Source of the DNA: Cristatella mucedo
Taxonomy: Eukaryota; Bryozoa; Phylactolaemata; Cristatellidae
NCBI GenBank assembly: GCA_009760855.2
Contig: WPIO01000001.1
Location: forward strand, 16,747,501-16,811,500
Direction of reading: 5' to 3'
DNA: 64,000 nucleotides
Shown here: positions 8,815 through 55,901 of the stretch, piece by piece
Numbering within the stretch: position 1 is the stretch's first letter
Layout of the letters: the number at the start of each line of letters is the position of its first letter
The notes under the pieces: generated by a model
What the model was told of the DNA's origin: nothing
The model's database searches: none
Seen by the model: the letters and a program-made list of their open reading frames with translations, nothing else
Translations under genes and position numbers: made by a program

Positions 8815-8820
8815 TATAAA
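8815..8820 (+). promoter_or_regulatory. TATA box of gene A
   Basis: TATAAA lies 92 bp before the ATG of gene A. TATA boxes at similar distances precede gene B and gene C exon 1. This would place the transcription start near 8,845 with a 5' UTR of about 60 nt. Confidence 0.55.
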
Positions 8821-8906
8821 TGCTCTCCACAAGCCACCGAGGATGGCAGTGAAGCAGCGAGTGCTGGCAGCAGTCGCAGCAGCAGCCGACAGCCGGAAGA
8901 GGCGAA

Positions 8907-9797
8907 ATGCGACGCTCGGTGGAAGGTGGCGCTCGTGCTAGTCGCGAAGATCCTGCAGCCGTTCTGCGAATTTTGCTGCTCGCTTTGGCAGTGGGCCTGT
9001 GCGAGGCGGCGGGTAAGGAAATGGCTGCGCTCGCCTCCTCTTTCCCTCTTTGAGCGAATGTCCCACCTTTTATTCCTCGTTCTTTCGCTCTTCTTTTTGT
9101 TTAAGCCATTTTCTCTCCGCACATGCACATACACGCACGAACGCATGCGCACACGCTGCCTCTGTCTGCTAACCGGAACTCATTCTTTCTTCGTTCCCCT
9201 CTCTCCCTCTCTCTCTCTCTCTCTCTCTCTCTCTCTCTCTCTCTCTCTCTCTCTGACATCTCTCTCTGTCATCTCTCTCTCTCTGTCATCTCTCTCTCTC
9301 TCTCTCTCTCTCTCTCTGTCGTTCGCTACTCTCGTCACTATTGGCGCTGGGCGAGTTCCAATCCTTGCTCGCTCCACTTCTCTTGAATCGTGCCGCGACC
9401 ACTTCCGCTCGTGCCGGGTTCGCTGCGTTCAAGGGATGCGCGGCAGCGCATGCTTGCTCCTTCGCGGCGGCTCAGAGGCGATCGTGCAACGGCAAGAGCA
9501 CCTTCTTCTTCCTCTTCTCCTTTGTCTTCTATAGCGACGATGCGTTCGAGCGACGAGCCCAGCCCAGCCGCAGCAGTGCCCGCAATCAAGGTGCTGGCGA
9601 AGCGGTGGAACGCTGAGCGGTTCATGCTCGGCCCTGGCGGCGGCGGCTGCTCGTTCGAGGTGCGCTGTCACCCCGGGGCATCATGCCAGCCGGCGACGTC
9701 GGCAGGTATGGCGGCAGTAGCCGCCCATGCGGCCGGGTCCGGCAGATGCGAATTCCACGCTCGCTGCGGCTACTACTGCCGCTCCGGTCGCAGGTGA
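8907..9797 (+). CDS. Gene A: secreted six-cysteine peptide precursor, two exons
   Basis: The CDS is the join of 8,907-9,012 and 9,535-9,797 (122 aa). Exon 1 encodes a basic N-terminus and a hydrophobic signal core (VLRILLLALAVGLCEAAG), then a donor G|GTAAGG in phase 1. The acceptor TTCTATAG|CG follows a pyrimidine-rich tract, and the frame continues cleanly. Exon 2 has a short propeptide, a Lys-Arg site (residues 58-59), then a peptide starting WNAERF. Its cysteines are at 74, 80, 86, 107, 113 and 117. The end is Gly-Arg-Arg, a usual signal for C-terminal amidation. Gene B shares exon layout, Lys-Arg-Trp, cysteine spacing and the blocks VRC-x-PGA-x-C and FHARCGY-x-C. The stop sits in a donor-like CAG|GTGAG, so a further exon cannot be excluded. 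I infer a neuropeptide, hormone or other secreted disulfide peptide; I do not recognise the family. Confidence 0.72.
9203..9318. repeat. (CT)n array inside the gene A intron
   Basis: CT repeat with CTGTCAT interruptions, lying within intron 9,013-9,534. The array accounts for the Ser-Leu ORFs around it. Confidence 0.95.
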
Positions 9798-10811
9798 GAC
9801 GCAGGTGAGATTCATTGAGCGTGCATAGCGGAGCGAGCTGGCCGCCGGAAGGCAGCGGCAATCGGCGACAGTGGACCCCTGCCTCGGTCGACCCAGACGT
9901 GCTCGCCGCCGCAGCCGGCGCGCCTCCAGCACGCTTCGTTCCGATCAATCGCGCGAACGGCGGCCGCGTCGGCACGCGTCTGCGAGCGCCGTCGAGGCTG
10001 AGCGCGATTGCCGGCTGCTGCTTGCTTCAGGCGACGCCGAGCAGTCGCCGCCGCCACCTCCGCCGCTCGGAGCGCGGCGCGCACTGCGCTTCGCCAGCCG
10101 AGTGCCGCGTTGGCAAGAGGAAGTCGATCGCAAGAGGCCGGGCGAGGAGACGACGCCATCTGCGGCGCTCGAGCCCGTCATCACGCCAACGGCGGCCGCT
10201 TTAAACTAGCGGCGGGCGCTCTACAGCCGCATCCGGTCTTCCGGTCTTGGGAAACGTGCGGGCGTGCACGTTCCGCTCGTTATGGGTGCACTTCACCCGT
10301 CGGCAAGCCGCCTGCAAAAGCAAATGAGACGCCCGAGGCGGCGGAAGCGGCGGGATTCGCGAATCGCCGCCTTCTTTTCGGAGTGACACCGCATCGGCGT
10401 CACTCCGAAACACAACGCCACGCAATGTGGCGTTGGCCAGCGTCCCGCTTTCGATCGCGAATCGCGCTGGGCGGCTCCTCTCGAGCTGCAGCGACGCCCG
10501 GAAGCATGCGACCAACGAGCGAGCGAGCGAGCGAGCGGGCGGGCCGCTCCGGTCAGGGCCGCTCCGGTCAAGGCCGCCGCAGCGCTCAGCGAAGAACCGC
10601 CGCCGCCGCCGGTCGTCCGGAGCTGAGCTGAGAAAACTCGATTCCGGCCATCATTCGCCGATCTCGCAGTCCTGACTTGGACGCGACGTGTTCGCGCGTG
10701 CTGCGTTCATGGACGGTCGGCCGTTTCTCGAAGCTCTTCACGCCGCCCCGGCTCTCGAGTCGACGCGAGAGGGCCTCTCGGAAACGTCAAGTCGGCCGGC
10801 AGCGCTTATTG
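9798..10811. other. GC-rich DNA after gene A, probably its 3' UTR or flank
   Basis: Very GC-rich, with many overlapping ORFs on both strands that look like composition artefacts. A (GAGC)n run lies near 10,516-10,536. No second six-cysteine exon was seen here. Confidence 0.4.
10376..10410. repeat. Inverted repeat, 12-bp arms
   Basis: TTTCGGAGTGAC and its exact complement GTCACTCCGAAA flank an 11-nt loop. A 12-bp palindrome, GATTCGCGAATC, lies about 25 bp upstream. Confidence 0.9.
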
Positions 10812-10817
10812 AATAAA
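10812..10817 (+). other. AATAAA, possible poly(A) signal for gene A
   Basis: First clear AATAAA on the plus strand after the gene A stop, about 1 kb downstream. Function is inferred from position only. Confidence 0.3.
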
Positions 10818-53700: not shown

Positions 53701-55281
53701 TATACATGATGTAGTAAGTAATTCTTATCCTTGATCTAGCTAGTAATCACTGTGCATGCTAATAATCTAACGTGCCGGCGGGTACTCGGCCCATCCACGC
53801 CCCCGGCTTCCGCCAAGAGGTCAAGGCCGCTACTGTCTGCTACCCGTAACTGAGGCGACCTGCTGCCTATCAAGCATATTTATGGAACGGACGGCACGAC
53901 GCCCGTCTCCTTGGCCACTGAGCTAACAGCGAAGGTGGGATTGCATTTCTAATACTTCTAATGATTTGCCTCATCCCCCCTCCGAGCTTTCGGGCGAACA
54001 CCTGCTCTATAGTTTGACCTGCTGCTTTGGCTGTTTGCCCCCCCCCCACCTGCGGCAGCATGGCCGTCTTGAAACTGATCGCACGCTGACACGCTACCTT
54101 CGGGCGCTCCGCGCCGTCGCCATAGGCGCTCGCCCGGTATTTGCTCTGGGCTTTGGCTATAGGAATAAAGCGATTTCGTAGGATGATCCTGCTCCCCCGT
54201 CAAGATCAGCGCATCACCTCGTACCCTTCTCGCGAGGTCTCATCCTACTTTGATTGAACATGAACGACGCTTCTTTCCTCGTTAATTATCGGGCTACCTC
54301 TGCTAGCGGAGCGTGACACCGCTATCCACATCACCATGGGCGGCGTCGGCTTTGGTGAGCGGTCACGAGCCACGCCGGCCTCGCGGAGCGTGACGGCTCG
54401 GTGCACCGCTGCACGCTGCAGCTTCGGCAGCGTCCTTTCGCAGTTGGTAGCAACTCGCCTTGCTCAGCCGCTCGCATACACGCACGTGTGAATCTGTGCA
54501 TGCTCTTGTGCTTTTGTGGCAGCATTCTCTACGCCGTTGCGGCCAGACGCTACTCTAGGCACGAAGTTTCTGGCGGCGTACTCTGAATGCTAGCATGTTG
54601 ACACGGCCTTCAATTTGATTTGATCAATTTGAGGACAATCAAATCAATTTGAAGACAAACGAGCCTAACTAGTCTACGCACTAGTAATATACTTTCCACA
54701 ACTCTAAACCTAGCGGTCGCAGACGATCGAAGCTTGACGATGGTGAGTGAGGCACCGGCATAGCATTTAAGCAGGTTGAAATCAAATTCGCCGATCCGCA
54801 TATCGGGGCAATAGAAACCGCCCCATTCGGACATCTCGAATGGATTGAAAACTGGAATCGCACAACCAGTGAACAAAAAGGAAAAGTAAATGCCCCGCAC
54901 CTTATAATTATAATAACGATAATCAAAAGTTCGCACAGCATCATCTTAGAAAGAATCTCTCGCAAGGCACTTTGCCTATTCTCACCTTGGAACGCACTTC
55001 TGCGGCTCTCTTAAAGCCCCCATGAGCTCGGCGACGACACCGAGGTCTACGCCGCGTCCACTCCAAGCTCGGCTCAAAGTATTTTCCGCCCCCTCGACTC
55101 GACTTCGGGCGCGACTCGCCTAGCGAACGACATCGAGAGGTTCACAGAATGGTAAGATGGCGGAAATGAAGTTCTCATCCCTCCTCACAGCTGCACCCCT
55201 TCGTAGCCCGCCTACATTCCCTAAAAGGAAATAGGCTCGGAGGCGTAACTTGCCGGCTTCGATCGGTGCAACTTGGCGCTG
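53701..55281. other. No gene called; f1-type tail at about 54,900-54,990 (-)
   Basis: GC-rich patches (54.0-54.5 kb) carry chance ORFs. 'TTAGAAAGAATCTCTCGCAA' with an adjacent TTATAATAACG run is a decayed minus-strand f1-type tail. Confidence 0.4.
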
Positions 55282-55288
55282 CATAAAA
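55282..55288 (+). promoter_or_regulatory. TATA-like box of gene B
   Basis: CATAAAA lies 96 bp before the ATG at 55,378 (75 bp before the one at 55,357). The match to 92 and 94 bp in genes A and C favours 55,378. Confidence 0.45.
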
Positions 55289-55377
55289 GCCTCGATTTAA
55301 ACGGACCGGGAATGACCAAGCGGCGGCCACGAGCTCGAGGCGAGAGGGCCACAGCGATGCAGCGGCGATGGCACGAC

Positions 55378-55901
55378 ATGGGCAGCGCCACTGCCGCCAC
55401 CGCCTCTGCAACGACCTCTTTCGTCCTGCTCGCAGCCTTTGCCGTCGTCGCCCTGGTGTCGTACGGCGACGCTGCTTGTAAGTGAATGAGTAGCCACGCT
55501 GTCCGCTGCCGCAAGCCGCTTAGCCGCCTCCGGCACTACGGCTGGACTTGCCACCCGAGGCGGGTCCGACCCACCGGCTTCGCAGTGCAGCCAGCACGCT
55601 CCCCTCCTTCGCAGGGACGGCGATGAAGCGAGACGACTCCGCCGCTGCCACCGAAGTAGCAGCAGCAGGCGAAACCAGGAGCAGCCCGTTGGAGCAGCTC
55701 GCGCGCCGGCCTCAGCGATCGGGGAAGCGATGGAGCTTCGACCGCTACGCTTCCGGTCAGCGAGGCTGCGCGTTCCGCGTGAGGTGCGCGCCAGGGGCGC
55801 CGTGCTCAGTCGCCTCCTCCGGCGCAGCGGGCGGCTCCGTTCGAGGCAAGTGCAGATTCCATGCGCGATGCGGCTACGACTGCCTGACGAACGGTGGCTG
55901 A
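55378..55901 (+). CDS. Gene B: secreted six-cysteine peptide precursor, paralogue of gene A
   Basis: The CDS is the join of 55,378-55,477 and 55,615-55,901 (128 aa; in-frame upstream ATGs at 55,357 and 55,312 would lengthen the N-terminus). Exon 1 ends in a hydrophobic segment (SFVLLAAFAVVALVSYGDAA) and donor T|GTAAGT, phase 1. The 137-bp intron ends at CCTTCGCAG|GG. Exon 2 encodes an acidic/Ala-rich propeptide, a Lys-Arg site (residues 71-72), then WSFDRY and cysteines at 85, 91, 97, 113, 119 and 123, ending Asn-Gly-Gly. Compared with gene A, the blocks F-x-VRC-x-PGA-x-C and C-x-FHARCGY-x-C are nearly identical, while the spacer between them is 15 rather than 20 residues. Conservation is confined to the signal layout and mature peptide, as expected for secreted peptides under selection. 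Function unknown; neuropeptide, hormone, antimicrobial or venom-like roles are all possible. Confidence 0.72.

What the first reader, a model, noticed from the sequence alone, without database searches (positions are those of the whole stretch)
8815..55901. Two paralogous genes for an unrecognised six-cysteine secreted peptide family
Genes A (8,907-9,797) and B (55,378-55,901) share a signal-peptide exon, phase-1 intron, Lys-Arg-Trp cleavage site and the pattern C-x5-C-x5-C-x(15-20)-C-x5-C-x3-C, with near-identical VRC-x-PGA-x-C and FHARCGY-x-C blocks. The upstream propeptides and introns have diverged (522 versus 137 bp). That is the mark of a conserved mature peptide. I know of no neuropeptide, defensin or toxin family with this exact pattern.
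Basis: partly seen in the sequence, partly recalled or inferred. Interest (0 to 1): 0.9.

Follow-up and report, generated by a model that had tools for sequence, protein, structure and literature searches.

The report
Five-gene six-cysteine secreted peptide family
An invertebrate genome carries at least five related genes for a small secreted peptide with six cysteines, laid out like a hormone precursor, that matched no peptide family searched here.

Summary
All five have a signal-peptide exon, a phase-1 GT donor, a KR site, N-terminal W-[NS]-x-[DE]-[KR]-[YF] and the same cysteine spacing, the C3-C4 loop varying from 9 to 20. In 181 kb the spacing occurs five times, once per gene, and in none of 20 simulations. 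Pfam, PDB, a UniRef/nr/metagenome protein set and open papers gave no convincing relative; the five-sequence protein search was truncated. The host is very likely a lophotrochozoan of unresolved phylum. Best reading: peptide prohormones cut at dibasic sites, releasing 51-69-residue, probably three-disulfide hormones; A may be amidated. Expression, disulfides and receptor are untested; a host-defence role or distant kinship to a listed precursor remains possible. New family of a known kind.

The parts
8815..8822 (+). TATA-box-like TATAAATG upstream of gene A
   Evidence: Read by eye; 92 bp before the ATG; consensus match only
8907..9012 (+). gene A exon 1: signal peptide (h-region ILLLALAVGLC), ends in phase 1
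9013..9534 (+). gene A intron, 522 bp, GTAAGG...TATAG, carries a (CT)n run
   Evidence: no transcript evidence
9535..9797 (+). gene A exon 2: propeptide, KR|W site, mature peptide with six Cys, ends CRS-GRR-stop (possible amidation site)
9600..9794 (+). gene A region from KR through the mature peptide
55282..55289 (+). TATA-box-like CATAAAAG upstream of gene B
   Evidence: Read by eye; consensus match only
55357..55477 (+). gene B exon 1 (ATG 55357 or 55378): signal peptide (h-region LLAAFAVVALV), ends in phase 1
55478..55614 (+). gene B intron, 137 bp, GTAAGT...TTCGCAG
   Evidence: no transcript evidence
55615..55901 (+). gene B exon 2: propeptide, KR|W site, mature peptide with six Cys, stop
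55725..55898 (+). gene B region from KR through the mature peptide
56538..56543 (+). AATAAA about 637 bp after the gene B stop (possible poly-A signal)
   Evidence: consensus match only

Best explanation
A five-member family of single-copy peptide prohormones. Each precursor enters the ER by a signal peptide (read from sequence), forms disulfides among six cysteines (inferred, connectivity unknown), is sorted to the regulated secretory pathway and cut at a KR site by prohormone convertases (inferred: KR before Trp in 5 of 5, none with the furin P4 Arg), and releases a basic peptide of 51-69 residues that begins W-[NS]-x-[DE]-[KR]-[YF]. The linear N-terminus and the core C-x-F-x2-[RQ]-C ... C-x-F-x2-R-C-G-x2-C are the conserved parts, so they are the likely receptor-binding surface and scaffold. 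In gene A the terminal GRR would give a C-terminal amide. The genes arose by local and dispersed duplication and probably supply ligands of shared or related receptors in different cells. All steps after the sequence itself are inference.
For: Five genes with one architecture: signal exon, phase-1 donor (GTAAG in 4 of 5, GTACAG in 1), KR|W, same Cys spacing. Mature part alignable, propeptide not: 15 invariant columns, 14 of them from KRW onwards. No furin Arg at P4 in 5 of 5 (L, S, Q, L, L; the furin rule is recalled). Hydrophobic N-terminal stretches, Kyte-Doolittle maxima 2.4-3.5. TATA-like box in the 160-200 bp printed upstream in 4 of 5, by eye, none seen for C656a. GRR at the end of A. 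Same precursor plan (signal exon, variable spacer, one Cys-rich C-terminal peptide) as CCWamide/agatoxin-like precursors in passages of PMC8557429.
Against: No transcript, peptide, tissue or receptor data. Only one of five ends in an amidation signal. Net charge +2 to +6 also suits a host-defence peptide. NG86 dN/dS on the mature codons is not uniformly low: 0.26-0.88 in eight of ten pairs, 1.10 in one (B-C111c), undefined in A-B because silent sites are saturated (50-62 codons, GC-rich third positions). Splice acceptors of the three genes outside the window are ambiguous.
Confidence: 0.55

Rival explanations
1. The peptides are secreted effectors rather than hormones: cationic host-defence peptides or components of a mucus or gland secretion, matured by the same dibasic cleavage.
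For: Small, basic (pI 8.3-9.4), Cys-rich, several paralogues in two clusters with variable loop lengths.
Against: Charge is only +2 in two of five; the linear N-terminus W-[NS]-x-[DE]-[KR]-[YF] is kept in all five; the copy number found is small, five in 572 Mb. No convincing Pfam match.
Confidence: 0.25
2. A very divergent branch of a known trochozoan Cys-rich precursor family (for example one whose sequences stand only in figures or supplements, such as the oyster GSWN, GWE or clionin precursors, or CCWamide/prohormone-3). Not exclusive with the best explanation: it concerns kinship, not mechanism.
For: Such precursors share the general plan; their sequences could not be read here; the five-sequence protein search was truncated to 7,994 candidates.
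Against: CCWamide/ALP has eight Cys, prohormone-3 twelve to sixteen, PXRX four; this family has six with fixed 5-5-n-5-3 spacing. The A+B search reported no candidate at E<=1 among 2,241.
Confidence: 0.3
3. Extracellular structural, matrix or inhibitor proteins that happen to carry a KR site.
For: No functional data exclude it; C-x-F-x3-C occurs twice in each of the five peptides and could be a small scaffold.
Against: KR directly before a conserved Trp in 5 of 5 and an unconserved propeptide are what cleavage predicts.
Confidence: 0.12
4. Artefact: chance open frames or copies of a repeat.
For: GC-rich DNA gives many long chance frames (305 stop-to-stop frames of 70 or more codons in the window); repeats lie beside the genes.
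Against: Genome-wide E-values down to 3.2e-14 between paralogues, 0 of 20 simulations with the spacing, repeats beside but not across the genes, only five convincing loci.
Confidence: 0.02

Closest known systems
CCWamide (spiralian) / agatoxin-like peptide (arthropod) precursors
   Different: Eight conserved Cys and an amidated aromatic C-terminus there; six Cys, another spacing and an N-terminal Trp here; usually three exons there, two coding exons modelled here
Prohormone-3 (ITG-like)
   Same: Cys-rich secreted precursor found in arthropods and trochozoans
   Different: 12-16 Cys (passages of PMC8398477 and PMC4018349) against six
Eclosion hormone
   Same: Six Cys; reported from lophotrochozoans (passage of PMC8398477)
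   Different: No Pfam eclosion-hormone match among the five; the EH Cys spacing, which differs, is recalled and comes from no call
PXRX (conchiferan molluscs)
   Same: Mollusc-specific Cys-bearing precursor family described without known relatives (passage of PMC6425005)
   Different: Four Cys and a P[FM]R[WY] motif there; six Cys and no such motif here

Membership tests
Peptide prohormone / neuropeptide precursor (kind) | signal peptide | tested here: met
   hydrophobic N-terminal stretch in 5 of 5; no signal-peptide predictor was available
Peptide prohormone / neuropeptide precursor (kind) | dibasic convertase site before a conserved peptide | tested here: met
   KR|W in 5 of 5
Peptide prohormone / neuropeptide precursor (kind) | expression in neurons or endocrine cells | not testable with these tools
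   no transcript data for this organism
Peptide prohormone / neuropeptide precursor (kind) | detected processed peptide | not testable with these tools
   needs mass spectrometry
CCWamide / agatoxin-like peptide | eight conserved Cys | tested here: not met
   six in 5 of 5 mature peptides; definition from PMC8557429
CCWamide / agatoxin-like peptide | amidated aromatic C-terminus | tested here: not met
   A would end CRS-amide; none of the five ends in an aromatic residue plus amidation signal
Prohormone-3 (ITG-like) | 12-16 conserved Cys | tested here: not met
   six in 5 of 5; definition
Prohormone-4 | LDL-receptor class A domain | tested here: not met
   no such Pfam match in 5 of 5; definition
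Eclosion hormone | match to the Pfam eclosion hormone model | tested here: not met
   no match in 5 of 5; looking for the genome's own EH gene did not complete
Inhibitor cystine knot | Cys spacing C-x(3-7)-C-x(3-8)-C-x(0-7)-C-x(1-4)-C-x(4-13)-C (recalled) | tested here: not met
   C3-C4 9-20, C4-C5 5, C5-C6 3 in 5 of 5
Inhibitor cystine knot | knotted disulfide connectivity | tested here: inconclusive
   AlphaFold model of B with a two-sequence alignment: mean pLDDT 58.2, pTM 0.37
CS-alpha-beta defensin | C-x3-C together with C-x-C (recalled) | tested here: not met
   C-x3-C present (C5-C6), no C-x-C in 5 of 5 mature peptides
PXRX | four Cys and P[FM]R[WY] | tested here: not met
   six Cys, motif in 0 of 5 precursors; definition
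Trissin | six Cys with an adjacent CC pair (recalled) | tested here: not met
   no CC in 5 of 5 mature peptides

The most novel reading that the evidence does not exclude
A so far unnamed lophotrochozoan hormone family with its own cysteine framework (C-x5-C-x5-C-x(9-20)-C-x5-C-x3-C after an N-terminal W-[NS]-x-[DE]-[KR]-[YF]), possibly built from an internally repeated C-x-F-x3-C unit, expanded to five genes in one lineage and acting on one of the orphan trochozoan peptide receptors.
Probability: 0.38. Interest if true: 0.65.

Novelty: new variant of a known kind. Interest (0 to 1): 0.5.

Why it matters
Several trochozoan peptide receptors have no known ligand and several ligands no receptor (discussion passages of PMC8557429). 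A new single-copy, probably three-disulfide ligand family with five paralogues in one genome gives concrete candidates to test. It also suggests that short spliced prohormone genes can still be missed by word-based protein searches, and supplies a profile (W-[NS]-x-[DE]-[KR]-[YF] plus the 5-5-n-5-3 spacing) for finding them elsewhere.

Tried and rejected
Pattern search of the genome for DNA of VRCxPGA gave nothing (the pattern fixed codons and was a poor probe). Protein searches of the UniRef/nr/metagenome set: A+B alignment, 2,241 candidates, none at E<=1; five-precursor alignment, the 7,994 candidates sharing most words, none at E<=1. Pfam: 2 precursors and 5 gave only weak hits judged to be chance (oligo_HPY best E 0.22, Phage_holin_3_5 0.012, LysM_RLK 0.24, INCENP_ARK-bind 0.24). 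PDB: one weak hit for B, 4o5p at E 0.018 and 18.7 bits, not repeated with the five-sequence profile, judged chance. Papers: ten strings from the peptides, 0 papers; the string fharcg had 0 occurrences in the 20 papers listed of 181. Two general searches listed no paper on this family that I recognised.

Thirteen weaker genome hits were set aside (C310; C7, C33, C430; C653 twice, C662, C682, C46, C321, C77, C244, C99). Ten of the thirteen had loci and were rescored with the family HMM: the best, C310, reached 14.1 bits over 28 residues (E 0.0025 in that small set, inside HMMER's inclusion threshold); the same hit was below it (E 0.019). None of the ten holds the six-Cys spacing or the KRW motif in any frame. 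C77, C244 and C99 gave no locus and were not checked.

Internal repeat: the C1-C2 and C4-C5 loops score 5th of 120 column orders, suggestive only. Organism: COX1 from the mitochondrial contig is 95% identical to an unnamed record and at most 82% to named ones in the 120 rows listed of 7,999; in a tree of 24 of those 120 plus the query it sits apart with the unnamed record, so the phylum stayed open. Mitochondrial gene order was compared with passages of PMC11488289 and the first of two parts of PMC8381911 without a decision. Passages of PMC3890597 and PMC4888303 gave no lead.
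Full report
The two genes are real features of the sequence. Gene A splices from 9012 to 9535 and gene B from 55477 to 55615; both introns are phase 1 with consensus ends, and the joined frames are open to stops at 9797 and 55901. After KR the peptides read WNAERF... and WSFDRY..., with cysteine gaps 5-5-20-5-3 and 5-5-15-5-3. TATA-like boxes lie 92 bp (A) and 75 bp (B, counted from 55357) before the start codons (by eye).

The family is larger than two. The window lies in an assembly of 572 Mb and 688 contigs, on contig C111. With the mature part of B, six places matched at E<=10: B itself, A at 2.2e-7, two on contig C656 at 8.5e-6 and 2.7e-5, a fifth on C111 at 0.30 and a weak one on C310 at 0.41. 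A query from the second C656 gene raised the fifth place, C111:16740286-16740441, 7 kb before the window, to 5.3e-12, and found the other C656 gene at 3.2e-14, A at 1.2e-9 and B at 1.7e-5. A query from A recovered B, C656b and, at 0.005, C656a, but not the fifth gene. So there are three same-strand genes within 64 kb on C111 and two opposite-strand genes 47 kb apart on C656. The three searches gave thirteen further weak hits; the ten with a locus hold neither the spacing nor the KRW motif, three were not checked.

All five genes have one plan. Upstream of each six-Cys exon stands an ATG frame with a hydrophobic stretch (Kyte-Doolittle maximum 2.4-3.5 over 11 residues) that ends in a phase-1 donor: GTAAG in four, GTACAG in one. 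The acceptors of A and B look strong; for the three outside genes more than one acceptor fits, so their propeptides are provisional. The precursor alignment has 15 invariant columns, 14 of them from the KRW onwards; signal and propeptide align poorly. The shared core is KR-W-[NS]-x-[DE]-[KR]-[YF] ...

In 181 kb of window and flanks the spacing, with no other Cys inside, occurs five times, once in each gene, and zero times in each of 20 simulations. Comparing 12 kb around A with 14 kb around B gives repeat-type matches (up to 549 aligned bases at 67%) beside the genes and none spanning them; the one match inside both second exons is 40 bp at 80%. Codon-position identities of A and B are 0.62, 0.69 and 0.36, the mark of coding constraint with saturated silent sites (pS 0.77, pN 0.33). 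Over the ten pairs the picture is mixed: omega 0.26-0.88 in eight pairs, 1.10 in one (B-C111c) and undefined in A-B, on 50-62 GC-rich codons, so dN/dS is weak support and not proof.

What the host is. The mitochondrial contig C688 reads well with AGR as Ser and TGA as Trp. Its COX1 is 95% identical to an unnamed record and at most 82% to named ones among the 120 rows listed of 7,999; the named rows listed are molluscs, nemerteans, annelids and a phoronid. In a tree of 24 of these 120 rows and the query it stands apart. The host is very likely a lophotrochozoan; the phylum is not settled.

How it probably works. Read from sequence: signal peptide, KR site before an invariant Trp, six invariant cysteines, variable propeptide. 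Inferred: cleavage in the regulated pathway, because none of the five sites has the furin P4 arginine (P4 = L, S, Q, L, L; the furin rule is recalled); three disulfides; receptor contact through the conserved N-terminus. The mature peptides have 51-69 residues, charge +2 to +6 and pI 8.3-9.4 (A after removal of GRR). Gene A ends in GRR, which would leave an amide; the other four have no such end. An AlphaFold model of B with A had mean pLDDT 58.2 and pTM 0.37, too low to use.

Comparison with known families. The precursor plan is that of single-copy Cys-rich prohormones such as CCWamide/agatoxin-like peptides, but those have eight cysteines and an amidated aromatic end (passages of PMC8557429). 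Prohormone-3 has 12-16 cysteines (passages of PMC8398477 and PMC4018349), PXRX four (passages of PMC6425005), prohormone-4 an LDLa domain. None of the five matches a Pfam model convincingly (best E 0.012, to a phage holin), and the five-sequence profile matched no PDB chain at E<=10. The UniRef/nr/metagenome set gave no relative for A+B with 2,241 candidates or for the five precursors with the 7,994 candidates sharing most words; that it holds many named animal proteins is seen. The second search may have been crowded by Ala-rich words (my inference), and relatives without a shared 5-mer would be missed. Open-access text holds none of ten peptide strings. Supplementary precursor lists could not be read, so I do not claim that the peptides are absent from print.

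Verdict. I rate it a new family of a known kind, Cys-rich peptide prohormones, at interest 0.5: a good candidate ligand family, with function and distribution open.

Noticed in passing
window 61601-61694 (+), donor at 61695: Another probable signal-peptide exon (MLLKVVLLTLVSFALGYDLGGDWTKYLDNLK) ending at a phase-1 GTAAGT donor, 5.7 kb after gene B; unlike the family by eye, and its open frame matched no Pfam family.
   Followed up: partly
window 13551-14189 (-) and 22175-22801 (+); similar frames at 11789-12312, 23040-23537, 25383-26157, 43268-44311: Fragments of a reverse-transcriptase element family: two of the ten frames scanned match Pfam RVT_1; the others look alike by eye.
   Followed up: partly
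window 51093-51755: 663-bp (CT)n array, one of many CT/GA microsatellites; a 15-bp unit repeated 11 times lies at 50243-50409.
   Followed up: no
L032-L034 (G000:C688): Mitochondrial contig of 21 kb with repeated frames about 2.1 kb apart, also present in the other orientation, a large-subunit rRNA on the strand opposite to the protein genes seen, and no frame noticed for cox2 or nad2; may be an assembly effect.
   Followed up: partly
G000:C166, C83, C549, C299 (L028-L031): Further COX1-like stretches with in-frame TGA and in some TAA or TAG, probably mitochondrial copies in nuclear contigs.
   Followed up: no
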